Positions 2,046 to 36,560 of a stretch of 38,428 bases of DNA are shown in pieces. Source of the stretch: an uncultured Prolixibacteraceae bacterium. GTDB lineage: Bacteria > Bacteroidota > Bacteroidia > Bacteroidales > Prolixibacteraceae. Under the pieces are notes generated by a model that saw nothing but the letters and a program-made list of their open reading frames with translations, was not told the origin of the DNA and did no database searches. Position numbers and translations under genes: made by a program. The first letter of the stretch is position 1. The number at the start of each line of letters is the position of its first letter. The stretch is from assembly GCA_903834475.1 (NCBI GenBank), contig CAILJH010000045.1, positions 1-38,428 on the forward strand, written 5' to 3'.

Positions 2046-2090
2046 ACTTTTGCTTACTCCTGCAAATTAGTAATATCAATGGCTACATCG

Positions 2091-3422: not shown

Positions 3423-3431
3423 CGTTTATAT

Positions 3432-4304: not shown

Positions 4305-4421
4305 TTGCAAATCTTTTTAATCCCTACCAACAATAATCCACATCATTCTGTAGGATGAAAGTACTCATTATTTTTATATTCAATCATTTTAACGGACATT
4401 TTAACTAATTATTATTCTTTT

Positions 4422-20390: not shown

Positions 20391-20531
20391 ATTTCAAATA
20401 AACTGGAATCTTAATCAAATTGGTTTCTAAGTCAAGGTCTGTAGATATGATCGGCTGGAAGTTTTGAGCCAAAACAGGCATTAGTTAACTTATTTCTTAA
20501 TTTAGAACCGTTAAAAAATAAAAAATTGGTT

Positions 20532-21950
20532 ATGGGTAATCAAAGGAAATTGGTCCGGACACTTGGGTTGGGCTACGTTATCATTTTTGTGATTGCAAAT
20601 ATCATCGGATCAGGGGTCTACAAGAAAATTGCACCGATGGCAGCAGAGCTTCACTCTTCGGTGTGGATATTGGCGGCATGGATTGTCGGAGGTATTATCA
20701 CCCTTTTCGGTGCATTAAGTAATGCTGAAGTCGCCGGTTTACTAGCCGATACCGGGGGCGAATTCGTTTATCTGAAGAAAATTTACAACCGATTTTTTGC
20801 ATTTATATATGGCTGGTCGCTGTTTACGGTCATCCAAACCGCCACCATTTCATCTTTGGCATACGTTTTTGCTCAATCGCTGAACAGCATCATCCCAATA
20901 CCTGATTTATTATCCTCCATGCAACACTTTTCGATCGGCGGAGTTTTCTTCCCATTTCAGGATTTTGGGGTCAAACTGGTTGCAATCCTGCTGATTTTAC
21001 TCCTGACCGGCCTCAATATTTCAGGCTTAAAAAGTGGGGCAGGAACCAGTAAAGCCATCCTTTTACTGGTTTTCACAGGTCTTCTGGTGATCGTTTTCTT
21101 TGGCTTGACCAGTTCAGTTCACACGCCTGAAAATTTTCTGAATGTCGGTGAACTGACCACCGGAGCCGTCACATTTTCATCCTTTTTCACAGCCATGCTG
21201 GCTGCTTTCTGGGCATATCAGGGCTGGGTTTCTGTTGGGTTTATCGGTGGAGAGGTTAAATATCCAACCCGGAACATCCCGAAAGGAATCGTGATGGGCG
21301 TTTTTGTGGTGATCTTCATTTACCTGTTGGTCAATGTGACTTACCTTTCGCTCATGTCTATTCCACAACTCGAACAAGTTCATGCGGCAGGCAATCAGAT
21401 TGCAGCTGTTGAGGCCGTGAGGAGTTTCTGGGGAACAGGTGGGGTGCTTTTTATTTCCCTGCTGATTCTTGTGACAACTTTGGGTTGTACCAACGCCAGT
21501 ATTCTTACCGGAGCGCGTCCCTATTATGCAATGGCCCGCGAACGGCTTTTCTTTTCAGGCATCGGAAAGCTGAACAATACCAACGTACCGGGGAACTCGC
21601 TGTTGGTGCAGGGAATATGGGCCTCGGTGCTTGTTTTATCCGGAACGTTCGATCAGCTGACCGACATGATTATTTTTGCCGTATTTATATTTTACGGAGC
21701 CACCACGCTCGGTGTGTTTATTTTGCGCCGCAAGATGCCCAATGCTCACCGGCCATACAAAGTATGGGGTTATCCGTTTGTGCCAGCCATTTTTATCCTT
21801 TTTTGTATTGGACTATTTGTCAATACCATTGTCGCCCGTCCCCGTGAAGCCGCCATTGGTATGACACTTATTTTATCAGGAATCCCGGTCTATTTTTTCC
21901 TGAAACGGAGATATTCGAAAAAGGAGGTTGATTCGGAATCGGAACTTTAA
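20532..21950 (+). CDS. APC-superfamily amino acid permease
   Basis: I choose ATG at 20532 (MGNQRK); a TTG two codons upstream also opens the frame. The product of about 472 residues has about 12 membrane helices. The first has the APC hallmark 'IIGSGVYKKIAP', the broken helix 1 that binds the substrate's amino and carboxyl groups, and 'AEVAGLLADTGGEFVYLKKIYN' follows helix 2. It is closest in feel to the LAT/SteT exchangers. The substrate cannot be read. A lysine or arginine/aspartate role is attractive because a cyanophycinase and a lysine degradation operon lie downstream, but that is inference. No adjacent regulator is present. Confidence 0.85.
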   Translation: MGNQRKLVRTLGLGYVIIFVIANIIGSGVYKKIAPMAAELHSSVWILAAWIVGGIITLFGALSNAEVAGLLADTGGEFVYLKKIYNRFFAFIYGWSLFTVIQTATISSLAYVFAQSLNSIIPIPDLLSSMQHFSIGGVFFPFQDFGVKLVAILLILLLTGLNISGLKSGAGTSKAILLLVFTGLLVIVFFGLTSSVHTPENFLNVGELTTGAVTFSSFFTAMLAAFWAYQGWVSVGFIGGEVKYPTRNIPKGIVMGVFVVIFIYLLVNVTYLSLMSIPQLEQVHAAGNQIAAVEAVRSFWGTGGVLFISLLILVTTLGCTNASILTGARPYYAMARERLFFSGIGKLNNTNVPGNSLLVQGIWASVLVLSGTFDQLTDMIIFAVFIFYGATTLGVFILRRKMPNAHRPYKVWGYPFVPAIFILFCIGLFVNTIVARPREAAIGMTLILSGIPVYFFLKRRYSKKEVDSESEL

Positions 21951-23402: not shown

Positions 23403-24653
23403 ATGAAAGAATTCAAACAACTTAACCTGGAAAAGTCCATTGCTGAATTCGCTTATGCAAAGACCTTGATCCCGGGAGGAGTCATGGGTATTCGCAGACC
23501 TTATAATTTCGTGGAAGGTGAGTATCCGATTTATTTCGAAAGCGGTAAGGGAAGTCATTTGACCGATATTGACGGCAATGAATACATCGACTATTTATGC
23601 GCTTATGGACCAACTATTTTAGGTAACCGGGAAGAAGAAATTGATAATGCTGTCATCCGGCAAATTCAGGAAAAAGGCTTTTGCTTCTCGCTTTGCCAGA
23701 CCCAACAGAACCAGTTGGCAGAAAAGATGAAAGAACTCATCCCTTGTGCCGAAATGAGCGTATTTGTTGGAACCGGTTCCGATGCCACCACTCTTGCCAC
23801 ACGGATTGCCCGCTCGTACACCAGCAAAAAGAAAATCTTCAGATGCGGATATCACGGCTGGCATGACTGGTGTGTGGAAGTCAAAGGCGGTGTTCCTGAA
23901 AAACTTTACGAAGATGTTCACGAATTTGAATACAACAATCTGGATGAATTGAAAGAGTTATTCAAGGTGCATGGAAACGATACAGCGGCTGTAATCATCA
24001 CTCCGTTTGGTCATCCGCTGGCCATGGAAATGCAGGAACCAAAACCAGGTTTCCTGGAATCAGTTAAAGAAATTACCCATCAGAACGGCACGGTATTGAT
24101 CTTTGATGAAATACGCACCGGTTTTCGCGTTTCGATTGGCGGTGCTCAAAAATACTACGGTGTTACTCCTGATCTGGCCGTTTTCGGAAAGGCGATGGCC
24201 AACGGATATGCCATCAGCGCGGTATGCGGAATAGCTGAAGTCATGAAAGAAGTTGAAAAGAAGGTTTTCATATCGTCAACCTTTTTCCCGAATAGCCTGA
24301 GTTATGTTGCAGCACTAAAAACTATCGAAATTTTGCAGCGCGATCAGGTGATAGAAAAGGTTTGGGAAAAAGGAACTTACTTCAACCAAAGCATCGAAAA
24401 GTTATTGCAAAAATTTCCGGTGGGTGCGCGCATTTCAGGAATTCCTCCGATGATGTTCATCACATTTGACAAGGATGAAGCCAAACAATACAAAAATAAG
24501 CGAACTGATTTTTATACCCAACTGATTCGTAGAGGTGTTTTCTTGCAGCCTTTTCATCACGGATACATTTGCTACCGGCACACTCAGGAAGATCTGGATT
24601 ATACGCTCCAATCCATCGAGGAAGCTTTACAATACGTTCAAAACAAGTATTAA
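23403..24653 (+). CDS. kat: Class-III PLP aminotransferase, probable 3-aminobutyryl-CoA transaminase (Kat)
   Basis: The 416-residue protein is a fold-type I, class-III aminotransferase. It shows the PLP-phosphate loop GTGSDATT (about 123-130), FDEIRTGFR with the PLP-ring Asp235, and the Schiff-base Lys263 in FGKAMANG. By sequence alone it looks like glutamate-1-semialdehyde aminotransferase (HemL). Its position as first gene of a complete lysine operon that lacks kal makes the better call the acyl-CoA beta-transaminase Kat. Kat was characterised from Cloacamonas acidaminovorans and turns 3-aminobutyryl-CoA plus 2-oxoglutarate into acetoacetyl-CoA plus glutamate. The thiolase at the operon's end would use that product. 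The next gene starts ten bases on, after a GAAGGAG Shine-Dalgarno. Function is inferred from context. Confidence 0.7.
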   Translation: MKEFKQLNLEKSIAEFAYAKTLIPGGVMGIRRPYNFVEGEYPIYFESGKGSHLTDIDGNEYIDYLCAYGPTILGNREEEIDNAVIRQIQEKGFCFSLCQTQQNQLAEKMKELIPCAEMSVFVGTGSDATTLATRIARSYTSKKKIFRCGYHGWHDWCVEVKGGVPEKLYEDVHEFEYNNLDELKELFKVHGNDTAAVIITPFGHPLAMEMQEPKPGFLESVKEITHQNGTVLIFDEIRTGFRVSIGGAQKYYGVTPDLAVFGKAMANGYAISAVCGIAEVMKEVEKKVFISSTFFPNSLSYVAALKTIEILQRDQVIEKVWEKGTYFNQSIEKLLQKFPVGARISGIPPMMFITFDKDEAKQYKNKRTDFYTQLIRRGVFLQPFHHGYICYRHTQEDLDYTLQSIEEALQYVQNKY

Positions 24654-24660
24654 GAAGGAG
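24654..24660 (+). promoter_or_regulatory. Shine-Dalgarno of the CoA-transferase A gene
   Basis: GAAGGAG ends three bases before the ATG at 24664 and starts right after the kat stop. It decides the start: the frame is open further upstream inside kat, but that reading overlaps kat by about 120 bases. Confidence 0.7.
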
Positions 24661-24663
24661 ATA

Positions 24664-25647
24664 ATGAGTACAAAAAACTTACAAACCGGACAGGGCGAAC
24701 TTTTCATGTCACCCAATGTGGAAGATGCACGGGCTTTCTTTCATCAGAAGAAAAAGCTGATGACCAATAAACTGACTTCAGTAAAAGAAGCAGTTGAACG
24801 CTATATACATAACGGCGATTACCTGGCTATTGGCGGTTTTGGCGGTGTGCGAATACCCACTTCGCTGTTACACGAAGTCATCCGGCAGCAGAAAAAGAAT
24901 TTAGGATTTTCAGGACACGTCGCCACTCACGATTGCCAGATTTTAAGTGCAGGCGAATGCTTCAACCGTTGCGACGCGGCTTATATTGTCGGGCTCGAAG
25001 CGCGCGGACTTTCAACCAATGCGCGCCGCCTGTTCGAATCGGGTACTATCCAGGTTACCGAATGGAGCAATGCCGCTTTATCATGGCGTTTTAAAGCTGC
25101 GGCCATGGGCGTGCCCTTTTTGCCATGCCGTTCGATGTTGGGCACCGATACATTTAAATACTCAGCTGCCAAAGAGATCGAATGTCCGTTTACAGGACAG
25201 AAACTGCTTGCAGTGCCTGCCCTCTTTCCTGATGTGGCTTTCATCCATGTCCATCGGGCCGATATCTATGGAAACTGTCAGATCGACGGCATTCTGGTTG
25301 CCGATGACGACATTGCAAAAGCGTCCAAACATGTCATTATTACTACGGAAAAAATAATCGATCACGAAGAAATCAGGCGCGAACCGGGTAAAACCATCAT
25401 CCCGTTCTGGTGTGTCGATGCCGTTATCGAAGTGCCGTTCGGTTCCTATCCGGGGAATATGCCCGGAGAGTATTATTCAGACGAAGAACACCTGGCCGAA
25501 TGGTTAAAGAAAGAGAAGAATCCGGAAGAATTTGCGGCTTTTATCCGGAAGAATATCCTTGAAACAAAAGACTTCTACGAATATTTGCAGCTCAATGGCG
25601 GCATTCAGAAAATTCAGAAACTTCATCAAACCGAACACCTCTTGTAA
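24664..25647 (+). CDS. Glutaconate-type CoA-transferase, subunit A
   Basis: The 327-residue product from ATG 24664 is a family I CoA-transferase alpha subunit. Its length (glutaconate CoA-transferase A is about 320) and sequence, with GDYLAIGGFGGVRIPTSLL near residue 50 and FPDVAFIHVHRADIYGN near 192, fit the GctA branch, not the roughly 220-residue AtoD branch. The catalytic Glu is in subunit B, encoded one base downstream. In this operon the expected job is moving CoA onto acetoacetate released by Kce, giving acetoacetyl-CoA for the thiolase. The CoA donor (acetyl-, butyryl- or succinyl-CoA) is unknown. The first 35 residues are an extension of uncertain role. Confidence 0.8.
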   Translation: MSTKNLQTGQGELFMSPNVEDARAFFHQKKKLMTNKLTSVKEAVERYIHNGDYLAIGGFGGVRIPTSLLHEVIRQQKKNLGFSGHVATHDCQILSAGECFNRCDAAYIVGLEARGLSTNARRLFESGTIQVTEWSNAALSWRFKAAAMGVPFLPCRSMLGTDTFKYSAAKEIECPFTGQKLLAVPALFPDVAFIHVHRADIYGNCQIDGILVADDDIAKASKHVIITTEKIIDHEEIRREPGKTIIPFWCVDAVIEVPFGSYPGNMPGEYYSDEEHLAEWLKKEKNPEEFAAFIRKNILETKDFYEYLQLNGGIQKIQKLHQTEHLL

Positions 25648-25648
25648 A

Positions 25649-26425
25649 ATGGAAACATACTATAACAACATGGAATTGATGGTGACTATTGCATCGCGCA
25701 ATCTCGAAGACGGCGCAGTGGTGGTTGTAGGCACAGGTGTTCCTTGCGCAGCGGCCATGCTGGCCCAAATGACACAATCGCCCAATCTTACCATCCTGTT
25801 TGAAGCCGGAGGTATCGCACCGCTGCTTCCATCCATGCCTATTTCGGTAGGCGATTCGCGAACCACTTACAAAGGATTGAAATCGACCTCCATGGCCGAA
25901 ATCATGGAATTTTGTCAGGCCGGAATTGTGGATTACTGCTTCCTGGGTGGAGCTCAAATCGACCAATATGGCAACCTCAACTCGACCATGATTGGTACCG
26001 ATTACAACAAACCGATAACTCGTTTCCCCGGAAGTGGCGGTGCAAACGATCTGGCCTCGCTCTGCTGGAAGACCATGGTTGTGACTCCTCAGAACCAGAA
26101 ACGCTTCGTAAAGAAGGTTGATTTTGTGACCACGCCCGGTTATTTGCAGGGAGGCAACTCCCGCACCGAAGCCGGTCTTCCGGTCAATACAGGTCCGTAT
26201 AAAGTAATCACCGACATTGGTGTTTATGGCTACCATCCTGAAACCCGGCAGATGATGTTGCTGTCGCTTCATCCCGGAAAAACCTTGGATGATGTGAAAA
26301 ACAATGCCGAATTCGAAATTCTGATCCCTGAGAAATACGAAATTACGGAAGAACCTACCGATTTCGAATTAAAGATCCTGAGGGAAAAAGTGGATCCCAA
26401 CGGATTGGTTATTGGCAGAAAATAA
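25649..26425 (+). CDS. Glutaconate-type CoA-transferase, subunit B
   Basis: I start the gene at ATG 25649, one base after the subunit A stop, which gives 258 residues, close to GctB (about 266). The conserved Glu52 in ILFEAGGIAPLLP is the probable catalytic residue that forms the glutamyl-CoA thioester; in glutaconate CoA-transferase the equivalent is Glu54 of the beta subunit. GSGGANDLASL near residue 131 and TDIGVYGYHPETRQM near 189 are also family-like. It works as a heteromer with subunit A. A second ATG seven codons downstream is possible. Proposed substrate in this operon: acetoacetate. Confidence 0.8.
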   Translation: METYYNNMELMVTIASRNLEDGAVVVVGTGVPCAAAMLAQMTQSPNLTILFEAGGIAPLLPSMPISVGDSRTTYKGLKSTSMAEIMEFCQAGIVDYCFLGGAQIDQYGNLNSTMIGTDYNKPITRFPGSGGANDLASLCWKTMVVTPQNQKRFVKKVDFVTTPGYLQGGNSRTEAGLPVNTGPYKVITDIGVYGYHPETRQMMLLSLHPGKTLDDVKNNAEFEILIPEKYEITEEPTDFELKILREKVDPNGLVIGRK

Positions 26426-26481
26426 GCTGAACTGCAAACTTGAAAGTCGAGAATTAAAACTAACGAAAAAAACAATCAGCA

Positions 26482-27309
26482 ATGAACAAGATGGTTATAA
26501 CATGTGCGGTATGCGGAGCCGAAACGACCCGTGCGCACAATCCGAATTTACCTCTTACTCCTGAAGAAATAGCCATTGCAACCTACGATGCTTATTTGGC
26601 AGGGGCTTCCATCGTCCATCTTCATGTTCGCGACGAAAACGGCGGACCGACGCAAGATCCTGAAGTTTTTAAAAAAGCCATCCGGCTCATCCGCGAAAAA
26701 TGTGACATTGTCATCGAAATCACTACCGGCGGAGCTGTTGGAATGACCGACGACGAACGCCTTCTGGTTGTTCAGGAATTACAGCCTGAAATGGCTTCGC
26801 TCGACTGCGGAACCGTAAATTTCGGGAATGATTACATTGTCAATACACTTCCTACCATGCGCCGCTTTGCCAAAGAGATGATCAAATACAATGTCCGGCC
26901 AACACTCGAATGCTTCGACATTTCACACATTCAGGCTGCGGACATCCTGATCAAAGAAGGATTATTGTCGCCGCCTTATTACTATGGATTCGTCATGAAT
27001 GTTCCGTGTGCTGTTCGTTACGACGTTGAAACCTTGCGATTCTTTGTGAACCGGATTCCAAAAGGCAGCTTGTGGACAGTCATGGGTGTTGGCAGTGCAT
27101 GCCTTCCGGCTCATTATGGCGCACTGGCCGTTGGTGGGGGATTCATCCGCGTTGGGTTTGAAGACAACGTCTATTACACCAAAGGAGTTTTGGCCGAAAG
27201 CAACGCACAATTAGTTGCCCGTACGGCTAAAATTTCAAGAGATGCAGGTCTCGAAATTGCTACACCGGCCGATGTTCGCGAAATGTTTCAACTTAAAGGA
27301 ATAAACTAA
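26482..27309 (+). CDS. kce: 3-keto-5-aminohexanoate cleavage enzyme Kce (BKACE family)
   Basis: The 275-residue protein belongs to the DUF849/BKACE family of zinc-dependent beta-keto-acid cleavage enzymes. Kce condenses and cleaves 3-keto-5-aminohexanoate with acetyl-CoA, giving acetoacetate and 3-aminobutyryl-CoA. The zinc site His46-Leu-His48 in IVHLHVRD matches in number and spacing the residues reported for the Cloacamonas enzyme. Glu227 in GFEDNVYY fits the third ligand, and TGGAVGMTDDER (about 82-93) is a family loop. It lies 56 bases after the CoA-transferase and two bases before kdd. The combination with kdd and kamADE makes the specific name firm. Confidence 0.93.
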   Translation: MNKMVITCAVCGAETTRAHNPNLPLTPEEIAIATYDAYLAGASIVHLHVRDENGGPTQDPEVFKKAIRLIREKCDIVIEITTGGAVGMTDDERLLVVQELQPEMASLDCGTVNFGNDYIVNTLPTMRRFAKEMIKYNVRPTLECFDISHIQAADILIKEGLLSPPYYYGFVMNVPCAVRYDVETLRFFVNRIPKGSLWTVMGVGSACLPAHYGALAVGGGFIRVGFEDNVYYTKGVLAESNAQLVARTAKISRDAGLEIATPADVREMFQLKGIN

Positions 27310-27311
27310 GA

Positions 27312-28364
27312 ATGATCGAAGTCAGAAAAGGAGGAAACCCGTTTGGAAGCCATCGGGTGATAGAGCCGAAAGGCGTTTTGCCTCAACCGGCCAGCCGGAT
27401 TGATAATTCGATGGACCGAATCTGGGACAATGAAATCCTGGTTGATGTGGACATTTTAAATATCGATTCGGCAAGCTTCACTCAAATCAAGGAAAAAACA
27501 AAAGACGATGTTGAAGCGATAAAAAAGGAGATTCTTTCGATTGTTTCGTCTCAGGGAAAAATGAAGAATCCGGTAACCGGTTCAGGAGGAATTTTCATAG
27601 GTACTGTTTCGAAAGTCGGTGATGCCTTGCAGGGTAAAATTGATCTGAAACCAGGTGACCGCATTGCTTCATTAGTTTCTCTTTCGCTGACTCCTTTGAA
27701 CATTGAAGAAATCATTGAGATTAAAAAGGATATCGACCAGGTAATCGTTAAAGCAAAAGCCATTTTATTTGAAACCGGTCTTTATGCCAAACTTCCAGCC
27801 GACATTCCGCCTTCGCTGTCAATGGCTGTTTTGGACGTGTGCGGCGCACCCGCTCAAACGCAACGTCTGGTGAAAAAGGACGACACCGTTGTCATCATTG
27901 GTGCCGGAGGAAAGTCAGGAATTCTTTGCGCCTACATGGCCAAACAGCAGGCTGGTCCTAACGGGAAGGTCATCGGAATTGAATTTAATGACCAGAACAT
28001 AGCGATATTAAAATCGCTGAACCTGTGTGACGAAGTTGTAAAACTGGATGCCACCAATGCACTCGCCTGCTACGAAATGATCAATGATCTGACTTCAGGA
28101 AAAATGGCCGATGTGGTGATCAATAATGTCAATATTCCCAATACTGAAATGGGTACCATCCTGATGTGCCGTCACCGGGGAATAGCCTACTTTTTTAGTA
28201 TGGCAACTTCGTTTACCAAAGCGGCCCTTGGCGCCGAAGGAGTTGGGAAAGACATTGATATGCTTGTCGGCAACGGATATGCCGTCGGCCATGCTGAACT
28301 TGCCCTGTCGATTTTAAGGGAAAGCAAAGAAATAAGGAAGATATACGAGGAATTGTACAGTTAA
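27312..28364 (+). CDS. kdd: L-erythro-3,5-diaminohexanoate dehydrogenase Kdd
   Basis: The 350-residue protein opens with the Kdd-type block KGGNPFGSHRVIEPKGVLPQ and carries a Rossmann motif GAGGKSG near residues 196-202. Kdd oxidatively deaminates 3,5-diaminohexanoate to 3-keto-5-aminohexanoate with release of ammonia and reduced nicotinamide. The binding domain is medium-chain-dehydrogenase-like. It starts two bases after the kce stop and is followed 11 bases later by kamA, consistent with one transcript. Whether NAD or NADP is used cannot be judged by eye. Confidence 0.92.
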   Translation: MIEVRKGGNPFGSHRVIEPKGVLPQPASRIDNSMDRIWDNEILVDVDILNIDSASFTQIKEKTKDDVEAIKKEILSIVSSQGKMKNPVTGSGGIFIGTVSKVGDALQGKIDLKPGDRIASLVSLSLTPLNIEEIIEIKKDIDQVIVKAKAILFETGLYAKLPADIPPSLSMAVLDVCGAPAQTQRLVKKDDTVVIIGAGGKSGILCAYMAKQQAGPNGKVIGIEFNDQNIAILKSLNLCDEVVKLDATNALACYEMINDLTSGKMADVVINNVNIPNTEMGTILMCRHRGIAYFFSMATSFTKAALGAEGVGKDIDMLVGNGYAVGHAELALSILRESKEIRKIYEELYS

Positions 28365-28375
28365 AAATTCAGTCT

Positions 28376-29656
28376 ATGATAATGACTTTTCAAAAGGTAG
28401 AATATAAACACATCCCTTTATACAAGGATGTTACCGCCGAACAATGGAACGACTGGAAATGGCAGATGCGTCATACAATTCGCGATATTGAAACACTTAA
28501 ACAGGTTGCTGAACTTTCGGATTCCGATATTGAAAACCTGGCCGAAACGCTGAAGAAGTTCAAAATGGCTATCACGCCTTATTATGCTGCCCTGATGGAT
28601 CCGGTTGATAAAACCTGTCCGGTTCGGATGCTGGCCGTTCCAACCCTGAATGAATTGTACACTGATGAGTTCGATCTGGAAGATCCGCTGCACGAAGACG
28701 TTGATTCGCCTGTTCCCGGATTAACCCATCGTTATCCCGATCGCGTTTTATTGCTGGTCACGCATCAGTGCTCCATGTATTGCCGGCATTGTACCCGTCG
28801 AAGAGTGGTTGGTGAAACCGACAGCCCAATGAGGCAGGATCATCTGGAACAAGCCTTTGAGTATATCCGCAACAATCCGATGATACGCGATGTGATTATT
28901 TCCGGAGGAGATCCTTTGGTCCTGAGCGATGAACGGATTGACTATATTCTGGGTGAACTCCGGAAGATTGAGCACGTGGAGATTATCCGTTTAGGAACGC
29001 GAATGCCTGTGGTATTGCCCCAGCGCATTACCGACAATTTGTGTGAAGTCATCAAAAAGCATCATCCTGTTTATGTCAATACGCACTTTAATCATCCCAA
29101 GGAGATTACAGAAGAATCAAAAATTGCCTGCGAGAAACTGGCCAATGTCGGAGTAAATATTGGCAACCAGTCGGTTTTGCTGAAAGGTGTAAACGATTGC
29201 CCGAACATCATGAAAAAGCTTTCGCACAAAATGATGCTGATTCGTGTCCGTCCTTATTACATCTACCAATGCGACTTATCCATTGGGATTTCTCATTTCA
29301 GGACCCCGGTTTCGAAAGGGATCGAAATTATCGAAAACCTGCGTGGACATACTTCTGGACTGGCCGTTCCAACTTTTGTGGTAGATGCTCCGGGTGGAGG
29401 TGGTAAGATTCCGGTGATGCCCGATTACCTGATTTCGCAAACCAACGATAAAGTGATCCTTCGTAATTTTGAAGGAGTGATAACTGCTTATTCGCAACCG
29501 ACGCATTATGAAGGGCACAACAAAGAGAACTGCGAATTTTGCGCCGACAAAAACCTTCTGGCAAAAGATGGTATCGCTACCTTGCTAAATGGAGATCGGA
29601 TCATGCTGCAGTCTGACGATTTGAGTCGTTCGAGACGCAGTAACGGAAAACATTGA
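28376..29656 (+). CDS. kamA: Lysine 2,3-aminomutase KamA (radical SAM)
   Basis: The 426-residue enzyme converts L-lysine to L-beta-lysine. Cys132, Cys136 and Cys139 in QCSMYCRHCTRR form the radical-SAM CxxxCxxC site for the [4Fe-4S] cluster. The C-terminal VDAPGGGGKIP block holds the PLP-binding Lys (near residue 344) and an Asp that recognises the lysine amino group. The second lysine-binding Asp lies in YQCDLSIGISHF. The length matches clostridial KamA (416 residues), with both ends slightly longer. It is followed by an unusually long gap (377 bases) containing palindromic repeats before kamB. Confidence 0.95.
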   Translation: MIMTFQKVEYKHIPLYKDVTAEQWNDWKWQMRHTIRDIETLKQVAELSDSDIENLAETLKKFKMAITPYYAALMDPVDKTCPVRMLAVPTLNELYTDEFDLEDPLHEDVDSPVPGLTHRYPDRVLLLVTHQCSMYCRHCTRRRVVGETDSPMRQDHLEQAFEYIRNNPMIRDVIISGGDPLVLSDERIDYILGELRKIEHVEIIRLGTRMPVVLPQRITDNLCEVIKKHHPVYVNTHFNHPKEITEESKIACEKLANVGVNIGNQSVLLKGVNDCPNIMKKLSHKMMLIRVRPYYIYQCDLSIGISHFRTPVSKGIEIIENLRGHTSGLAVPTFVVDAPGGGGKIPVMPDYLISQTNDKVILRNFEGVITAYSQPTHYEGHNKENCEFCADKNLLAKDGIATLLNGDRIMLQSDDLSRSRRSNGKH

Positions 29657-29705
29657 TTTTAAGAATGATATCCGCAATTCCCAAATGGCTAATCCAGGTT
29701 CAAAA

Positions 29706-29830
29706 TAAATATTTCGTACCTACGGCACTCCGGATTCAGCGGTTAATCGGTGTTCTACAAATATCTCGTGCCTCTGGCACTTTTACCTATCCGGAAAGTG
29801 GAGCCCCAGAGGGGCAGAATATTTGTAGAA
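29706..29830. repeat. Large palindromic intergenic element with partial tandem half-copy
   Basis: Outer arms TTCTACAAATAT (29753-29764) and ATATTTGTAGAA (29819-29830) are perfect 12-base inverted repeats. Inside lie two small perfect hairpins, GTGCC-TCT-GGCAC (29768-29780) and GCCCC-AGA-GGGGC (29803-29815), whose inner bases CCTCTGG and CCAGAGG are also complementary to each other. At 29706-29730 there is a degenerate second copy of the left half. The element resembles a palindromic repeat class I know from other Bacteroidota intergenic regions. RNA from it could fold in two alternative ways. Confidence 0.75.
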
Positions 29831-29898
29831 ATGCGAAATACGCGAAAGAGACCGTCCGCGCGGCAATGTTATTCAAGGTAAAAAACCATCTTTCGGAC

Positions 29899-29915
29899 GC
29901 CTGCCAGCCGCAGGC
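29899..29915. repeat. GC-rich hairpin
   Basis: Arms GCCTGC (29899-29904) and GCAGGC (29910-29915) enclose a five-base loop. The motif is close to the palindromes at 8858-8874 and 34904-34918, so at least three copies of this type occur in the window. Confidence 0.6.
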
Positions 29916-30033
29916 AGGGAATCCTGCCAGGAGACAAACTGTGCAACGACCTTAAATATTGTCAGATTCTTGCAGTGTTTTATTTGAAAATTCATGATTT
30001 GTAAACATTCAGTTTGTAACAAAAGACCTTAAC

Positions 30034-30921
30034 TTGATCCTTAACAACGAACATATCAGGCCGTACCTGCTGCAAAATCTTCAGGATAAAACCACCTTTA
30101 TTGCTGGAAATGTCAAGAATGCCGGTAAAACGACTTTCCTGAATTACCTGTTGCCGATACTTCGGGTAAGCGGGAATCCGTTTGTTTACACCAGTATCGG
30201 TGTCGATGGAGAGGATTTCGACCGGATTACCAGTCAACGAAAGCCACAGATTGTGGCTGTTGCGGGCGATTTTGTCGTTTCGACCAACAAAGCGCTTCAA
30301 AACAAAGGATTTCAGTTGGTTGAAGCTTTTCCGTTCAACACAACTGCCGGTCAGATTGTAATGGGAAAAGCTACCCGACAGACTCCGATTGAACTCATTG
30401 GGCCGGAAGATAATGACAGCCTTGCTTCAATCCTTGAGATTATTAAAACTCAGCATCAAATCACAACAGTTTTAATCGACGGCGCCATCAACCGGATAAC
30501 CCAGCTGGCAAGTGCAGTCAATCCGGTTTATGTTTTTGTAGCTACAGTTGACCGCCGAAATGTGAATGAGCTGATGCACGAATTAAAACGTCTTTCGGTG
30601 CTGAATGAGATTCAGGTCTGGGATGAACTAACGACTGATGCCGAAGAAATACAAGGCGCGCTGACCGAATCCCGATTAAGAGAGATTCCTGCATCATGCA
30701 ATTCGCTTGTTATTAGCGATTTCACAAAGATATTTTTACCTTTAAGAAGTTTACTGAATTTGCTTCAGACCCAAAAAATCTATTTTAAAAACCGGTTTCC
30801 CATGATATTCTGCGTGCTAAATCTGAAAGATATCAGTCAGCATCAATGCGAAGTTCATTTGAGCAAAATAGGCTTTTCCATCGATGTGCTCTTTAATCCG
30901 TACCAACAAAATCCGTCATGA
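30034..30921 (+). CDS. kamB: KamB, P-loop NTPase of the lysine 5,6-aminomutase operon
   Basis: No ATG is available: the frame opens after a TGA at 29995, and the first usual start is TTG at 30034, giving 295 residues. The P-loop NVKNAGKTT (residues 26-34) resembles the KNSGKTT loop of MobB and other SIMIBI-class nucleotidases, so the protein should bind ATP or GTP. The rest matches no enzyme I can name. Position between kamA and kamC-kamD-kamE is the place of KamB in clostridia, fusobacteria and Porphyromonas, where its function is unproven. Its stop overlaps the kamC start (ATGA). A G-protein-like chaperone role for the B12 mutase, like MeaB for methylmalonyl-CoA mutase, is a guess. Confidence 0.8.
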   Translation: MILNNEHIRPYLLQNLQDKTTFIAGNVKNAGKTTFLNYLLPILRVSGNPFVYTSIGVDGEDFDRITSQRKPQIVAVAGDFVVSTNKALQNKGFQLVEAFPFNTTAGQIVMGKATRQTPIELIGPEDNDSLASILEIIKTQHQITTVLIDGAINRITQLASAVNPVYVFVATVDRRNVNELMHELKRLSVLNEIQVWDELTTDAEEIQGALTESRLREIPASCNSLVISDFTKIFLPLRSLLNLLQTQKIYFKNRFPMIFCVLNLKDISQHQCEVHLSKIGFSIDVLFNPYQQNPS

Positions 30922-32525
30922 TATTCACTGAAGAGCTTTTTCAATTCACACGTTTCGGGGAATTTTACGAAAATTTCAGGCCTTTGACCGTTTTTGGCAA
31001 ACGGTTCAAAAACCGGATGGTAGTTTTTGATCGTGCCGATGAACTTCAGGAAATATCTAACTTGATTGCCAAAACCGTTGAATTCATCGCTGAAAATCCT
31101 GAAAAGGCGAATCAGATTGAGTTTTTTTTGAAACGGATTTCACCTCTGAACACCTTTGAAAAAGAGTCATTCGACACGACAGACCTGTTTCTTTTGAAGC
31201 GGTTTCTCAGCAATTTCAAGTCAATCAGTTTACTGCTTTCTCCTGAATTAAGGAAGGTTTTTTCAGTAGATTTCCAGCTCGAAGAACTGCTTTCGTTCCT
31301 TTCAAAAGGCGAAAACGAAATCGATACTTTTTATATTTCAGGAGATTACAACCCCAGACTTAAAGCGGTTCGATCGCAGATTGAATTTGTTGACAAAGAA
31401 ATCCAGGCAATCCGGAACGAAACTTTTTCAATCCTTCAGCACAAGTACGCTCTCAACTTTACAAACCTCGATTTTTTGGTTGTTCCGGAAATGACAGCAT
31501 TCCGTTTTGAACCTAACCAGATTTATAAAGAGCCCTATGATAATACTTCAGTGCTGGTAAAACCTGTTATGCCTGAGCTGTTTTTTGCGAAGTCAGAAGA
31601 ACGGGAAAACCTCATCATTACCGAATCAGAATTGGAGCACGAAGTACTACTTTTCCTTTTGGCTGAAGTAAAAAAACAGATGACCGAAATTGAACAGGCG
31701 ATTGATGCCGTTCAGAACATTGATGTCAATCTGGCTAAAGTGCGGATGGTGCAGAGCATGGAATTAACTTCACCGATCCTGACGGAAGACGCGATTCAAA
31801 TTGAAGTGATTGATGGGCATTTTCTTCCGCTCGAAAAACAATGCGCCGAAAAAGGACTTCGCTACCAGCCGCTCGATGCGATATTCGATAATCAAACGAT
31901 TGTAATCAAGGGCTCCAACATGGGCGGTAAAACGGTTTTGCTGCAGACCATCGGATTTCTTCAGATGATCAGCCAAATGGGATTTTGGGTACCGGCAAAA
32001 CAGTTTCGATCGCGTGTATTTAAGCACATTCAATTCATTGGCATCGAACGCAAGTCCAAAGAAATTGAAGGGTTGAGCAGTTTTGGAAAAGAAGTTTTTC
32101 AACTCAGCGAAATTCTGGAAAAGCTTGATGAACCTGTTTTGATACTGATCGACGAATTCGCCCGAACCACCAATTCCATTGAAGCCGAAGCATTGACTGC
32201 CGCTCTGCTGGAAACATTCTCAGAAAAAAATACGGTGAATGCCTTTTTGTCAACGCATTTCACTCATTTGCCATTAAGCGGACAGGCATCGGTTTACCGG
32301 ATGAAAGGACTCAACTATCAAGGATTTGAAGAGGAATACTCTCGAAGCAAAAACCTTGATATAACCGATCGCATCAGATTACTAAATCAGCATAACGATT
32401 ACAGCATTGTGAAAGACACTGCAGATTTGCCCTGTTATGACGCACTTCAGATTGCCGGATCACTTGGCTTAGACAACGAATTAATTACACGCGCCAGAAA
32501 TATTTTAGGAGGAAAAAATGAATAG
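30918..32525 (+). CDS. kamC: KamC, MutS-like ATPase of the lysine 5,6-aminomutase operon
   Basis: The 535-residue protein ends in a MutS-type ABC ATPase: Walker A GSNMGGKT (about 332-339), Walker B LILIDEFAR (about 409-417), then the TNSIEAEALTAALL dimer-contact helix and the H-loop STHFTHLP. A helical lever/clamp-like region precedes it (about 150-320). The mismatch-recognition and connector domains of MutS are absent, so DNA repair is unlikely. Its place is constant next to lysine 5,6-aminomutase genes. It overlaps kamB by four bases and kamD by eight, so all three are tightly coupled in translation. A role in assembling or reactivating the aminomutase is plausible and unproven. Confidence 0.88.
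   Translation: MIFTEELFQFTRFGEFYENFRPLTVFGKRFKNRMVVFDRADELQEISNLIAKTVEFIAENPEKANQIEFFLKRISPLNTFEKESFDTTDLFLLKRFLSNFKSISLLLSPELRKVFSVDFQLEELLSFLSKGENEIDTFYISGDYNPRLKAVRSQIEFVDKEIQAIRNETFSILQHKYALNFTNLDFLVVPEMTAFRFEPNQIYKEPYDNTSVLVKPVMPELFFAKSEERENLIITESELEHEVLLFLLAEVKKQMTEIEQAIDAVQNIDVNLAKVRMVQSMELTSPILTEDAIQIEVIDGHFLPLEKQCAEKGLRYQPLDAIFDNQTIVIKGSNMGGKTVLLQTIGFLQMISQMGFWVPAKQFRSRVFKHIQFIGIERKSKEIEGLSSFGKEVFQLSEILEKLDEPVLILIDEFARTTNSIEAEALTAALLETFSEKNTVNAFLSTHFTHLPLSGQASVYRMKGLNYQGFEEEYSRSKNLDITDRIRLLNQHNDYSIVKDTADLPCYDALQIAGSLGLDNELITRARNILGGKNE
32507..32512 (+). promoter_or_regulatory. Shine-Dalgarno of kamD
   Basis: AGGAGG, five bases before the ATG at 32518, lies inside the end of kamC. 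Such a strong site is unusual in this window, where most starts have none. Confidence 0.75.
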
Positions 32526-34077
32526 ATCAAAATTGGACCTCGATCCCGAAAAGATTGACTATGCCCGCGAAATCTCTAAAAAGATAACGCAACCCGTTCA
32601 GGATTATATTTCCGGACATACCACCGTTTCGGTTGAGCGGACCACCTTGCGGATGCTGGGTGCTGATGGCATTGACGCCAACGAAGTTCCGGTCCCCAAT
32701 CTCATTATTCAACAACTCAAAGAGCGGGTTGGCGAAGGTACGGCCAAATTTTACATCAATGCTTTACTAAAAAAAGGTCTCACGCCGTCTGCATTAAATA
32801 GCGAAATTGCCAACGGTCTCGATATTTCAACACTCGAGTGGGCTGAATCAGCTCAGATTGAAAAGAAAGCTGCAGAATTGGTTCAATCGTTTTCTTCGCG
32901 TGTTAAAGAAAATGTAGGCTTCCGGAACGAAAAACTGGCCCTGCACAACAGCAGTCAAAGCACGCCGCTGCTCTATTTAATTGTTGCTACCGGAAACATC
33001 TACGAAGATGTGAAGCAGGCGCAGGGAGCCGCCATTCAGGGAGCAGATGTGATCGCAGTGATACGTACCACCGGACAAAGCCTGCTCGACTATGTTCCTT
33101 TTGGCCCAACCACCGAAGGATTCGGAGGCACCTATGCGACTCAGGAGAACTTCAAAATCATGCGAAAAGCACTGGATGAGGTTGGTGAGAAAATTGGAAA
33201 ATACATTCGGTTGGTCAATTACTGCTCCGGACTTTGCATGCCAGAGATTGCCGTCATGGGTGCCTTGGAGCGCCTGGATATGATGCTGAATGATTCGATG
33301 TACGGCATACTTTTCCGCGACATCAACATGTACCGCACTTTTGTGGATCAGAAGTTTTCGAGAATGGTCAATTCTTTTGCCGAAATCGTTATCAATACCG
33401 GCGAGGACAACTATCTGACAACTTCGGATGCCTTCGAAAAAGCATACACCGTAACTGCCTCACAGTTTATCAATGAGCAGTTTGCCTTTGAGTCGGGCAT
33501 GCCGGCGCGCTTAATGGGTTTGGGTCATGCCTTTGAAATGAATCCCGAAATGAAAAATGGATTCCTGTTTGAGATGGCTCAGGCACAAATGGCCCGTGAG
33601 ATTTTCCCTGAAGCTCCTTTAAAATACATGCCGCCAACCAAATATATGACCGGCGACATTTTCAAAGGATATGCCATGAACACGCTTTTCAACTTCATCG
33701 CCAAGTCAACCAATCAAGGAATCCTGTTGCTGGGAATGCTGACTGAAGCCATTCACACGCCTTTTATGCAGGACAGATATCTCGGCGTTGCCAATGCCCG
33801 GTATGTACTGAACAGCATGGCCGATTTTTCCGATGATATTGAATTTAAAAAGGATGGCATCATGCAGACCCGGGCCAAAAATGTATTGGACCAATCCATT
33901 TCTTTTCTTGAACAGATCAACGAAAAAGGATTGTTCAATGCGATTGAGCAACGGATGTTTGCCGAGGTCGCCCGTCCCAAAAATGGAGGCAAAGGACTGG
34001 ATGGAGTCTATGAAAAGACCGAAGGATATTACAATCCAATGTATTCGTTTTTAGCGCGCGAACTGAAGATTAATTAG
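32518..34077 (+). CDS. kamD: Lysine 5,6-aminomutase alpha subunit KamD
   Basis: The 519-residue length and sequence fit the catalytic TIM-barrel subunit of adenosylcobalamin- and PLP-dependent lysine 5,6-aminomutase (clostridial alpha about 516 residues). The complex moves the terminal amino group of beta-lysine from C6 to C5, giving 3,5-diaminohexanoate. Typical blocks include SVERTTLRMLGADG near residue 39, IVATGNIYEDVKQAQGAA near 153, VIRTTGQSLLDYVPFGPTTEG near 181 and MPPTKYMTGDIFKG near 371. It starts at a strong Shine-Dalgarno inside kamC and is followed 12 bases later by kamE. Confidence 0.94.
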   Translation: MNRSKLDLDPEKIDYAREISKKITQPVQDYISGHTTVSVERTTLRMLGADGIDANEVPVPNLIIQQLKERVGEGTAKFYINALLKKGLTPSALNSEIANGLDISTLEWAESAQIEKKAAELVQSFSSRVKENVGFRNEKLALHNSSQSTPLLYLIVATGNIYEDVKQAQGAAIQGADVIAVIRTTGQSLLDYVPFGPTTEGFGGTYATQENFKIMRKALDEVGEKIGKYIRLVNYCSGLCMPEIAVMGALERLDMMLNDSMYGILFRDINMYRTFVDQKFSRMVNSFAEIVINTGEDNYLTTSDAFEKAYTVTASQFINEQFAFESGMPARLMGLGHAFEMNPEMKNGFLFEMAQAQMAREIFPEAPLKYMPPTKYMTGDIFKGYAMNTLFNFIAKSTNQGILLLGMLTEAIHTPFMQDRYLGVANARYVLNSMADFSDDIEFKKDGIMQTRAKNVLDQSISFLEQINEKGLFNAIEQRMFAEVARPKNGGKGLDGVYEKTEGYYNPMYSFLARELKIN

Positions 34078-34080
34078 AAC

Positions 34081-34085
34081 GGAGG
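34081..34085 (+). promoter_or_regulatory. Shine-Dalgarno of kamE
   Basis: GGAGG lies four bases before the ATG at 34090, in the 12-base gap after kamD. Confidence 0.75.
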
Positions 34086-34089
34086 AACT

Positions 34090-34821
34090 ATGCAACTCAT
34101 CAAACCCTATGGAGATACTTTGAACGATGGAGCTGTTCAGCTTTCGTTTACCTTGCCGGTGGCAAACGGAGCCAAAGCCATTGAAGCGGCCATTCAATAT
34201 ACCAAAAAACTGGGATTCACCGAAGCCGAAGTCGTGAACGCTCATCCTCTTTCCGACGATTTTACTTTTTTTGTGGTTTACGGAAAAACCCCATTGGCTA
34301 TTGATTACGACAAAATCGTTGTTGAAGAAATTGAAAAGCCGATGGATTTTTATGGCGTGAACAGCTACATCAAGGAACACATCCAGCGAAAGATTGCAGT
34401 GATTGGTGCCTGTACCGGGACCGATGCGCACACCGTTGGGATTGATGCCATCCTAAACATGAAAGGCTGGGAACAGCACTACGGATTGGAGCGATATCCG
34501 ATGATTGATGCCTTTAACCTTGGCGCACAAATCCTGAATGAAGATTTAATCCGTCTGGCTGTGGAGAAAAATGCTGATGCCATCCTGGTTTCGCAGGTGG
34601 TTACACAAAAAGATGTGCATATAAATAACCTCACCAACTTCATCGAACTGCTTGAAGCCGATGGTCTGCGTTCGCAGTTTATTGTGCTTGCCGGGGGACC
34701 GCGCATCAGCAACAAACTGGCACTCGAACTGGGTTTTGATGCCGGTTTTGGCCGTGGCACCTATCCGGAGCATGTCGGATCTTTCATCGCTAAAAAGATG
34801 GTTGAGAAGATGATGAGATAA
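34090..34821 (+). CDS. kamE: Lysine 5,6-aminomutase beta subunit KamE (B12-binding)
   Basis: The 243-residue subunit has a dimerisation region (about 1-95) and a Rossmann B12-binding domain. The base-off/His-on motif DAHTVG gives Asp112, His114 and Gly117, with His114 as the lower cobalt ligand. Lys125 in LNMKG is 11 residues further, the same spacing as the His133/Lys144 pair of the Clostridium sticklandii enzyme, so it is the probable PLP-anchoring Lys. The distal SxL...GG part is seen in VLAGGPRISNK near residue 197. It functions only with KamD. An array of short palindromes follows. Confidence 0.95.
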   Translation: MQLIKPYGDTLNDGAVQLSFTLPVANGAKAIEAAIQYTKKLGFTEAEVVNAHPLSDDFTFFVVYGKTPLAIDYDKIVVEEIEKPMDFYGVNSYIKEHIQRKIAVIGACTGTDAHTVGIDAILNMKGWEQHYGLERYPMIDAFNLGAQILNEDLIRLAVEKNADAILVSQVVTQKDVHINNLTNFIELLEADGLRSQFIVLAGGPRISNKLALELGFDAGFGRGTYPEHVGSFIAKKMVEKMMR

Positions 34822-34918
34822 GTCCGAAGGACTTTAATTTGAATAACCTCCGGTGAAACCGGAGGCAACAAAACAAAGGGAATTCGGAACCCCGAAGTGC
34901 CTGCCTGCCGCGGGCAGG
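34822..34918. repeat. Cluster of four short palindromes between kamE and thiolase
   Basis: Four hairpins follow each other: GTCC/GGAC (34822-34832), CCTCCGGT/ACCGGAGG with a three-base loop (34847-34865), TTCGG/CCGAA (34883-34896) and CCTGCC/GGCAGG (34904-34918). None is followed by a proper T-run, so they are better described as dispersed intergenic repeats than as terminators. They may still modulate read-through or mRNA decay before the thiolase gene. Confidence 0.65.
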
Positions 34919-34970
34919 GGTTCAACTGTGTTTCAAAAATAGCTGAGAAAAAAAATTAAACGAAATAACC

Positions 34971-36152
34971 ATGAACGAAGTATTTATCATCGATGCTGTC
35001 CGCACAGCAATCGGAAACTTTGGAGGAGCAATCTCCTCGCTTTCCGCCACCGAACTGGGAACAATCGTTGTTAAAAACCTGCTGGAACGAAATAAGCTGA
35101 ATGGCGAAGAAGTGGATGAAGTTATAATGGGCAATGTTTTGCAGGCTGGTCAGGGCCAAAATATGGCCCGACAGGTAGCCATTCATGCCGGTATTCCGAA
35201 TGATAAAACAGCCATGACCATCAACATGGTTTGTGGTTCAGGCCTACGAACAGTAACCCTGGCGGCTCAGGCAATCAAATCAGGCGATGCCCAACTGATT
35301 ATTGCCGGAGGCGCCGAGAGCATGTCGAATGCGCCATACTTGTTGCCAAAGGCCCGATACGGATACAAAATGGGCAACGGCACATTAGTCGATTCAATGG
35401 TCAATGATGGTTTGTGGGATGTTTTCAACGATTACCATATGGGGCTGACTGCCGAAAACCTGGCCACCAAATATGATCTGAGCCGCGAAGAGCAGGATTT
35501 GTTTGCCGCTCAATCGCAAAACAAAGCTGAAAAAGCCATTCAGGATGGAAAATTTAAAGACGAAATTGTTCCGGTGTTGATTCCGCAGAAGAAAAAGGAC
35601 CCGATCGTTTTTGATCAGGATGAGTTCGTTCGTTTTGGCGTCACTCCTGAATCACTGGCAAAACTTCCGGCAGCTTTTAAATCCGGCGGAACAGTTACAG
35701 CAGCCAATTCATCGGGCATCAACGATGGTGCTGCGGTTATTCTGCTGGCAAGCTCTGAAGCCGTTAAGAAATACAATCTGAAACCAATGGCCCGGATAGT
35801 TTCCTATGCTTATCATGGAACCGATCCGTCGATCATGGGAATCGGACCTGTTGAAGCGGTAAAAAAAGCCCTTGCCAAAGCTGGATGGACGGTTGGTGAT
35901 CTGAATCTGATTGAAGCCAACGAAGCCTTTGCCGCTCAGGCGTTATCCGTTCAAAAAGAACTTCAGTTCAATACCGATATGGTCAATGTAAATGGCGGTG
36001 CCATTGCTTTAGGTCATCCAATCGGAGCCAGTGGAAGCCGGATTCTGACCACCCTCGTACACGAAATGAAACGACGCAAGGCCGAAAAAGGATTAGCAAC
36101 TTTGTGCATTGGTGGAGGCATGGGTATTGCCCTATGTGTTGAATTGTGCTAA
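34971..36152 (+). CDS. Acetyl-CoA C-acetyltransferase (thiolase)
   Basis: The 393-residue length and all active-site elements match biosynthetic or degradative acetoacetyl-CoA thiolases: the nucleophile Cys88 in NMVCGSG, His349 in [16 protein letters not shown], and the second catalytic Cys379 in LCIGGGMG. In this operon it should split acetoacetyl-CoA, formed by the transaminase and by the CoA-transferase, into two acetyl-CoA. A thiolase at this position is expected if the pathway ends in acetyl-CoA and not in butyrate. It has no Shine-Dalgarno; the 149-base gap upstream is filled with palindromes. Confidence 0.93.
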
Positions 36153-36191
36153 CTATTGAATATCTTTAAATCCCAATTTAAAGCAGAAGAT

Positions 36192-36560
36192 ATGTTGTTG
36201 ATTGCGATGAATTTAATATTTGTAGCCTGTATTTTATACACCATAGGAGTTTGGAGTGAAAAGATTCAAGGTCGTTTAAAGCCGTGGCACCTCGTGGTAT
36301 TTTGGCTCGGATTATTTTTTGACACGGTTGGTACTGGAGCGATGGGAATTCATGCAGGTTCCATCATCCAATTTAACTTTCATGGCATCACTGGAATGTC
36401 AGCCATATTGTTGATGCTCTTTCATTCGATATGGGCTTCAATAGTCCTATTTAAAAATCAGAGGGAGAAAATCCTTCAATTCCATAAATTCAGTCTTGTT
36501 GTTTGGATTATCTGGCTTATCCCCATGATAACAGGAATGATTTATGGTTCTTCGATGTAG
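36192..36560 (+). CDS. HsmA-family small membrane protein (TIGR03987-like)
   Basis: I choose ATG 36192 (MLLIAMNLI); a TTG at 36156 would add 12 residues. The 122-residue product has four membrane helices, at about 2-20, 31-50, 60-82 and 96-118. The sequence pattern IGVWSEKIQGRLKPWHLVVFW, FDTVGTGAM, NFHGITG and HKFSLVVWIIWLIP matches the family annotated HsmA/TIGR03987, whose function is unknown. Several His residues at helix ends could bind metal or haem. It is the last gene on this strand, 39 bases after the thiolase. Confidence 0.6.
   Translation: MLLIAMNLIFVACILYTIGVWSEKIQGRLKPWHLVVFWLGLFFDTVGTGAMGIHAGSIIQFNFHGITGMSAILLMLFHSIWASIVLFKNQREKILQFHKFSLVVWIIWLIPMITGMIYGSSM

What the first reader, a model, noticed from the sequence alone, without database searches (positions are those of the whole stretch)
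23403..36560. Complete lysine-to-acetyl-CoA operon using a transaminase in place of Kal
Seen: kat-like class-III aminotransferase, CoA-transferase AB, kce, kdd, kamA, kamB, kamC, kamD, kamE, thiolase and an HsmA-like gene, all on one strand. No roughly 130-residue kal (3-aminobutyryl-CoA ammonia-lyase) is present. Known: classical lysine fermenters use Kal, crotonyl-CoA and butyrate; Cloacamonas has a 3-aminobutyryl-CoA transaminase. Inference: here lysine runs to acetoacetyl-CoA and acetyl-CoA, with nitrogen captured as glutamate, which demands an external electron sink and not butyrate formation.
Basis: partly seen in the sequence, partly recalled or inferred. Interest (0 to 1): 0.75.

Follow-up and report, generated by a model that had tools for sequence, protein, structure and literature searches.

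The report
Kat-type lysine degradation operon
This is a bacterial gene set for breaking lysine down to acetyl-CoA with a transaminase in place of the usual ammonia-lyase, a pathway variant published in 2011, here in a Bacteroidota species that also has genes for oxygen respiration and hydrogen production.

Summary
Window 23403-36560 carries, all on the + strand: a class-III aminotransferase, two CoA-transferase subunits, kce, kdd, kamA-E, thiolase and an HsmA-family gene. No kal was found in the window's genome (66% complete) or in a 99%-complete congener with the same genes; a kal-bearing genome was the positive control. The window's genome has a separate hemL. The aminotransferase falls in a Kat group distinct from HemL; 39 of 80 relatives lie beside at least one lysine gene, and 0 of 80 fetched stretches show a kal match. 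The variant is already published: Perret et al. 2011 (PMC3149608) assayed Kat from Cloacamonas and from a Bacteroidetes genome with a clustered lysine pathway. Refinements: only one of lysine's two nitrogens goes to glutamate; the CoA-transferase is glutaconate (GctAB) type, not AtoDA; oxidases and NADH-linked [FeFe] hydrogenases are possible electron sinks. 'No butyrate' is plausible but unproven. Of 23 genomes searched in this genus, two carry the genes. Verdict: a well-supported new member of a known kind; low interest.

The parts
23403..24653 (+). kat: 3-aminobutyryl-CoA aminotransferase (class III PLP, 416 aa; PLP lysine expected at K263)
   Evidence: PF00202 182 bits; best HemL models far below cut-off; Kat clade and residue pattern
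24664..25647 (+). ctA: GctA-type CoA-transferase alpha subunit (327 aa)
   Evidence: PF01144; best solved relative glutaconate CoA-transferase 1poi_A 154 bits
25649..26425 (+). ctB: GctB-type CoA-transferase beta subunit (258 aa); Glu52 aligns with a glutamate of GctB
   Evidence: 1poi_B 160 bits and alignment; Glu52 kept in 17 of 17 ctB homologues found in the 80 loci
26482..27309 (+). [quoted passage not shown]
   Evidence: NF052387 374 bits, just under cut-off 382; solved Kce 2y7d_A 220 bits
27312..28364 (+). kdd: L-erythro-3,5-diaminohexanoate dehydrogenase
   Evidence: NF052381 270 bits, cut-off 200
28376..29656 (+). kamA: lysine 2,3-aminomutase
   Evidence: TIGR03820 626 bits, cut-off 525
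30034..30921 (+). kamB: lysine 5,6-aminomutase reactivase subunit (divergent)
   Evidence: NF052386 136 bits, below cut-off 210; position and 91% match in G415
30918..32525 (+). kamC: MutS-like reactivase ATPase
   Evidence: NF052383 362 bits, cut-off 300
32518..34077 (+). kamD: lysine 5,6-aminomutase alpha
   Evidence: NF052384 822 bits, cut-off 600
34090..34821 (+). kamE: lysine 5,6-aminomutase beta
   Evidence: NF052385 370 bits, cut-off 280
34971..36152 (+). acetyl-CoA C-acetyltransferase (thiolase)
   Evidence: TIGR01930 492 bits, cut-off 240.55
36156..36560 (+). HsmA-family small protein, role unknown
   Evidence: TIGR03987 149 bits, cut-off 78; no Pfam match
20526..21950 (+). APC-superfamily amino-acid permease, possible lysine uptake (substrate is a guess); 94% identical upstream of kat in G415
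   Evidence: PF13520 148 bits; synteny

Best explanation
An intact Kat-variant lysine degradation operon. Lysine becomes beta-lysine (KamA), then 3,5-diaminohexanoate (KamDE, kept active by KamBC). Kdd oxidatively deaminates it, releasing ammonium and NADH; Kce cleaves the product with acetyl-CoA into acetoacetate and 3-aminobutyryl-CoA. Kat transfers the remaining amino group to 2-oxoglutarate, giving acetoacetyl-CoA and glutamate; glutamate dehydrogenase can recycle the glutamate. A GctAB-type CoA-transferase probably activates the acetoacetate, and thiolase yields acetyl-CoA for Pta-AckA or the TCA cycle. The surplus electrons, about four per lysine, probably go to the terminal oxidases or the NADH-linked hydrogenases. 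Shown here: gene content, order, purifying selection, Kat-group placement, no detectable kal, presence of hemL, gdh, oxidase and hydrogenase genes. Inferred: every reaction in this organism, and the electron route.
For: Gene identities. Same order in G415 as far as its contigs reach, and kat-ctA-ctB-kce-kdd in Carboxylicivirga, Plebeiobacterium, Sumerlaeota and a spirochaete. 39 of 80 Kat loci have at least one lysine gene in the fetched stretch, 37 have two or more, 0 of 80 have a kal match (one Kal query, E 1e-6). Kal not found in G000 or G415; found in G297 as positive control. Separate HemL above cut-off in G000 and a 34%-identical HemL-like match in G415, not scored further. 43 positions constant across the Kat rows differ from HemL. 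Kat activity shown for the Cloacamonas enzyme and for one from a digester Bacteroidetes genome with a clustered pathway (PMC3149608, parts 1-3 of 6 read). Candidate sinks: aa3-type, cbb3-type, [FeFe] group A6 hydrogenases; GDH; Pta and AckA in G415.
Against: No activity was measured for this protein, and neither assayed Kat sequence was in hand for comparison. The window's genome is 66% complete. Tree: quick method; the branch between Kat and non-Kat rows has SH-aLRT 94, not starred, and three of the 13 outgroup rows have implausibly long branches. A sister clade, 61-64% identical, lies in a quite different gene neighbourhood, and one genome holds both Kal and a member of it, so similarity alone does not fix the substrate.
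Confidence: 0.9

Rival explanations
1. The aminotransferase is the organism's HemL (glutamate-1-semialdehyde aminomutase) and lies in the operon by chance.
For: Its best family matches are HemL models (288 and 281 bits) and its best solved relatives are HemL structures.
Against: It is far below the HemL cut-offs (398, 527), while another gene of the same genome scores 660 and 622. It is 24-34% identical to the 30 non-Kat rows extracted and 61-94% to the 80 Kat rows. It keeps its place by lysine genes in many phyla. A position that is Glu in HemL rows is His in Kat rows.
Confidence: 0.02
2. Classical Kal/butyrate pathway, with kal on an unassembled part of the genome.
For: The window's genome is only 66% complete, and one Desulfobacteraceae genome (G465) has both Kal and a Kat relative.
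Against: Kal was not found in G415 (99% complete) with the same genes. In 8 Marinilabiliaceae genomes with Kat (G453-G460) there was no Kal match in 5 and only a 21-25 bit match in 3, far below the 160-bit cut-off; such weak matches also occur in 8 of 14 control genomes. The kal-bearing G297 has kal next to kce, plus EtfBA beside a ~380-residue acyl-CoA dehydrogenase and Hbd beside crotonase, pairs not seen in G415.
Confidence: 0.04
3. Kat makes acetoacetyl-CoA, but the cell reduces part of it to butyryl-CoA internally, so no external electron sink is needed.
For: G415 has EtfBA beside a ~570-residue acyl-CoA dehydrogenase, and a 3-hydroxyacyl-CoA dehydrogenase between pta and ackA. Perret et al. 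drew such a branch for Cloacamonas, with unidentified steps.
Against: The 3HCDH scores 232 bits against a 3-hydroxybutyryl-CoA dehydrogenase cut-off of 408 (G297's scores 449). The ~380-residue acyl-CoA dehydrogenase of G415 lies by a biotin carboxylase, an enoyl-CoA hydratase and an isopentenyl-PP isomerase, not by Etf. Crotonase was not searched genome-wide, so this is not excluded.
Confidence: 0.15

Closest known systems
Kat variant of lysine fermentation, Candidatus Cloacamonas acidaminovorans CLOAM0809 and digester Bacteroidetes DIG1_60031 (Perret et al. 2011, PMC3149608)
   Same: HemL-like class III aminotransferase in place of kal, upstream lysine genes present, kal missing; the Bacteroidetes example is also clustered.
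   Different: Those come from an anaerobic digester and are described as fermentative; this genome also has oxidase genes. The Cloacamonas CoA-transferase is AtoDA (complex of 101.5 kDa); here it is GctAB-type. Which type the 2011 Bacteroidetes contig has is not stated in the text I saw (figures are not held).
Classical Kal pathway (Fusobacterium nucleatum, Clostridium sticklandii)
   Same: Steps from lysine to 3-aminobutyryl-CoA, with KamA, KamDE, Kdd, Kce.
   Different: No Kal found; the Bcd-like/EtfBA and Hbd/crotonase pairs of the kal-bearing G297 were not seen in the 99%-complete congener.
Glutaconate CoA-transferase GctAB (PDB 1poi)
   Same: Subunit sizes, best sequence match (154 and 160 bits), glutamate kept.
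   Different: Only moderate similarity; placed in a lysine operon, where acetoacetate is the expected acceptor.
HemL
   Same: Closest relatives among solved structures.
   Different: Below HemL cut-offs; separate HemL in the same genome.

Membership tests
Kat (3-aminobutyryl-CoA aminotransferase, EC 2.6.1.111) | class III PLP aminotransferase with the PLP lysine | tested here: met
   PF00202 182 bits; Lys263 of the motif FGKAMANG aligns with the lysine of the matching GK in HemL structures
Kat (3-aminobutyryl-CoA aminotransferase, EC 2.6.1.111) | encoded with kce/kdd/kam genes in place of kal | tested here: met
Kat (3-aminobutyryl-CoA aminotransferase, EC 2.6.1.111) | about 65% or more identity to the assayed Kat proteins | tested here: inconclusive
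   assayed sequences not in hand; Cloacimonadota relatives L098, L104, L115, which share the kat-thiolase pairing reported for CLOAM0809/0810, are 64-65% identical
Kat (3-aminobutyryl-CoA aminotransferase, EC 2.6.1.111) | transamination of 3-aminobutyryl-CoA with 2-oxoglutarate | not testable with these tools
   needs an enzyme assay
HemL | score above the HemL equivalog cut-off (TIGR00713, 527 bits) | tested here: not met
   281 bits; the genome's other gene scores 622
Classical Kal lysine fermentation | kal (NF052388 / Kal part of NF052389) | tested here: not met
   not found in G000 (66% complete) or G415 (99%); positive control G297 at 202 bits
AtoDA-type acetoacetate CoA-transferase | scores above TIGR02429 / TIGR02428 cut-offs (128.5 / 243.55) | tested here: not met
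   51.7 and 38.5 bits
GctAB-type class I CoA-transferase | catalytic glutamate of the beta subunit (its role is recalled) | tested here: met
   Glu52 aligns with the glutamate of 1poi_B; the four 5n00-5n03 chains aligned lack it; kept in 17 of 17 homologues
GctAB-type class I CoA-transferase | acts on glutaconate | not testable with these tools
   the operon suggests acetoacetate instead

The most novel reading that the evidence does not exclude
A respiratory or hydrogen-evolving lysine oxidation module, in which Kat is paired with a GctAB-type (not AtoDA) CoA-transferase that activates acetoacetate, so that lysine is oxidised to acetyl-CoA without butyrate. It occurs across Bacteroidota, Sumerlaeota and some spirochaetes, and is carried only sporadically within this Prolixibacteraceae genus.
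Probability: 0.45. Interest if true: 0.4.

Novelty: new member of a known kind. Interest (0 to 1): 0.25.

Why it matters
It shows that the Kat variant, assayed in 2011 from two digester lineages, is widespread: among the 80 relatives kept by the scan (of 462 found), 39 lie beside lysine genes, in records titled Bacteroidota, Spirochaetes, Sumerlaeota, Riflebacteria, Fibrobacteria, an anammox planctomycete and others. If used with oxidases or hydrogenases, lysine from decaying biomass would yield acetate and reducing power, not butyrate. For annotation: a HemL-like gene beside kce is better called kat.

Tried and rejected
HemL identity rejected (scores, separate HemL). Kal hidden elsewhere: searched with two models, not found in G000 or G415. 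A missing gene in the kamA-kamB gap: the only ORF listed there (29653-29955) has no Pfam match and the stretch looks repeat-like to the eye; treated as intergenic. Promoter/terminator scan: promoters no more than in shuffles (20 against mean 23.6), terminators slightly more (20 against 15.8, sd 4.2); uninformative. Empty-site comparison: of 7 same-genus regions fetched around hflX, none showed operon genes, but two are cut short by contig ends and the neighbourhood varies, so gain and loss cannot be told apart. Literature: (open-licence PMC only). Of the papers listed I opened PMC3149608 (parts 1-3 of 6 and passages) and passages of PMC8397731, PMC8674449, PMC8027456 and PMC8473912; only the first two mention Kat in what I saw.

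Counts and dropped rows: the tree used 74 rows: the window, 60 of the 80 Kat relatives (20 left out by my own choice, to thin similar rows) and 13 of the 30 HemL or other rows extracted. In one search, 36 loci were given; 3 of them show no Kat gene, apparently because a longer antisense ORF displaced it in my filter. An earlier count said 'of 33'; 36 is right.
Full report
What is there. The window is one whole contig (G000:C45) of a 66%-complete genome. Of the 22 other genomes of its genus searched, only G415 has the Kat gene at high identity (94%). G415's kat contig has the same number and length (C167, 28,173 bases) as CAIPKZ010000167, titled uncultured Prolixibacteraceae, so I take the window to be Prolixibacteraceae. 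From 23403 to 36560, all on the + strand, lie kat, ctA, ctB, kce, kdd, kamA, kamB, kamC, kamD, kamE, thiolase and an HsmA-family gene. KamB (136 bits, cut-off 210) and Kce (374, cut-off 382) fall below their cut-offs; position and conservation support them. Against G415, the 9 operon genes compared show dN/dS of 0.017-0.179 with no internal stops, so they look to be under purifying selection.

Kal and HemL. Kal was sought with the bifunctional Kal-Kce model (18 genomes) and the Kal model itself (15 genomes). In one search the Kal part matched only in G297 and G465; the other matches are of the Kce part. In one search, 6 of 15 genomes had a match at E<=0.01; G297 had 202 bits, the other five 20-25 bits against a cut-off of 160, and such matches also occur in 8 of 14 control genomes. 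G000 and G415 (99% complete, 2% contamination) had none. In G297, kal lies next to kce. Of the 80 genome stretches around Kat relatives, 0 show a Kal match (G297 Kal as query, E 1e-6). A separate HemL scores 660 and 622 bits in G000; the window protein scores 288 and 281 on the same models. In the tree the 61 Kat rows stand apart from the 13 HemL and other rows (SH-aLRT 94, not starred; the program warned of long branches among the outgroup). Across 75 Kat rows, 43 positions are constant (at most one exception) and differ from the residue found in at least 9 of 10 HemL rows.

Context elsewhere. A genome scan found 462 relatives and kept the best 80. Of these, 39 have at least one lysine gene in the fetched stretch and 37 have two or more; many stretches are cut by contig ends. 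They include Carboxylicivirga and Plebeiobacterium strains, Sumerlaeota, Spirochaetes, Riflebacteria, Fibrobacteria, a Bdellovibrionales record and an anammox planctomycete. The CoA-transferase beside them is GctAB-type in 16, AtoDA-type in 14 and not seen in 9 of the 39. In the window it is GctAB-type: best solved relative glutaconate CoA-transferase (154 and 160 bits), with a glutamate at ctB residue 52 aligned to that of 1poi_B and absent in the four 5n00-5n03 chains aligned (its catalytic role is recalled). It is kept in 17 of 17 ctB homologues in the 80 loci. That two CoA-transferase types accompany the same pathway supports, but does not prove, a role in activating acetoacetate.

Distribution near home. 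KamD was found in 4 of 395 genomes of the class (own included, E<=1e-100). In the genus and family it was found in 2 of 37: own and G415. Kat at 94-100% identity was found in the same two of 61 genomes, 23 of them of this genus (own included); the other matches are 38% identical or less. The operon is thus accessory in this genus; gain and loss could not be told apart.

How it works. By pathway knowledge and Perret et al. 2011 (PMC3149608; parts 1-3 of 6 and passages seen): Kce yields acetoacetate and 3-aminobutyryl-CoA, Kat converts the latter with 2-oxoglutarate to acetoacetyl-CoA and glutamate, and a CoA-transferase and thiolase lead to acetyl-CoA. Kdd releases the first nitrogen as ammonium, so only one of two nitrogens passes through glutamate. 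My balance: lysine + 4 H2O = 3 acetate + 2 NH3 + 4 [H], against lysine + 2 H2O = butyrate + acetate + 2 NH3 for the classical route. So without butyrate an electron sink is needed. G000 and G415 each have three COX1-family matches; in G000 these are an aa3-type CtaD (651 bits, just under its 670.75 cut-off), a fused cbb3-type subunit and a NorB-type protein. Three [FeFe] hydrogenases scored (two of G000, one of G415) are above the cut-off of group A6, named NADH-dependent. Glutamate dehydrogenase is present in both; G415 has pta and ackA. The sink is not uniformly respiratory among Kat carriers: Plebeiobacterium marinum (G453) had no COX1 match while Carboxylicivirga mesophila (G456) had two; both have PF02906 hydrogenase matches.

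Butyrate. The kal-bearing G297 has a ~380-residue acyl-CoA dehydrogenase beside EtfBA, and Hbd (449 bits, cut-off 408) beside crotonase (360, cut-off 394). G415 shows neither pair. Its ~380-residue acyl-CoA dehydrogenase lies with a biotin carboxylase, an enoyl-CoA hydratase and an isopentenyl-PP isomerase, which I read as leucine degradation to mevalonate. It does have EtfBA beside a ~570-residue acyl-CoA dehydrogenase, and a 3-hydroxyacyl-CoA dehydrogenase (232 bits, cut-off 408) between pta and ackA. G000 had one weak acyl-CoA dehydrogenase match and no 3HCDH match, which means little at 66% completeness. Crotonase was not searched genome-wide. So 'no butyrate' is likely, not shown.

Known or new. 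The Kat enzyme, its replacement of Kal and its presence in a Bacteroidetes genome with clustered lysine genes were published in 2011 with enzyme data for both lineages. In the open-licence library, 3 papers hold '3-aminobutyryl-CoA aminotransferase': that one; a Thaumarchaeota paper that reports putative Kat and Kal without the rest of the pathway (PMC8397731, passages); and one I did not open (PMC9966250). I found no paper on the GctAB-type pairing, on one search (2 papers hold both terms; of PMC8473912 I saw lysine passages only; of PMC9403272 only the listing). I therefore file this as a new member of a known kind.

Noticed in passing
L073-L119 without lysine genes, e.g. L074:5053-11260, L113:4961-11248 (NaphS2): A sister clade of Kat, mostly in deltaproteobacterial records (61-64% identical to the window), sits in a different conserved cluster: a saccharopine-dehydrogenase-like protein (29 of 36 loci; directly upstream of Kat in 8 of the 10 printed), a molybdenum hydroxylase resembling 4-hydroxybenzoyl-CoA reductase (FAD, FeS and Mo subunits in 22, 18 and 22 of 36) and a methylmalonyl-CoA-epimerase-like protein (10 of 36). 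Positions 30, 35, 67 and 207 separate it from lysine-cluster Kats. I know of no described pathway with this set; no literature search was made.
   Followed up: partly
L071 (Candidatus Anammoxibacter): An anammox planctomycete carries kce, kdd, kamA, kamD, kamE and kat in one stretch, suggesting lysine degradation by an anammox bacterium.
   Followed up: no
G465 (genome of L100, Desulfobacteraceae): One genome holds a Kal next to a Kce as well as a Kat relative at another place.
   Followed up: no
22103-23194 (-): Peptidase S51 / cyanophycinase-like gene (77 bits, cut-off 126.6) between the permease and kat. In G415 only a 41% match lies in the 541-bp gap there (L040), while G396 has a 78% copy next to hflX.
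   Followed up: partly
435-4310 (-): Multihaem cytochrome c-like protein, a ferredoxin/FAD oxidoreductase-like protein and a protein without a family match, found as a block in G415 too (L121); a possible electron-transfer module.
   Followed up: partly
29657-30033: 377-bp gap between kamA and kamB with repeat-like palindromes (by eye) and no recognisable gene.
   Followed up: partly
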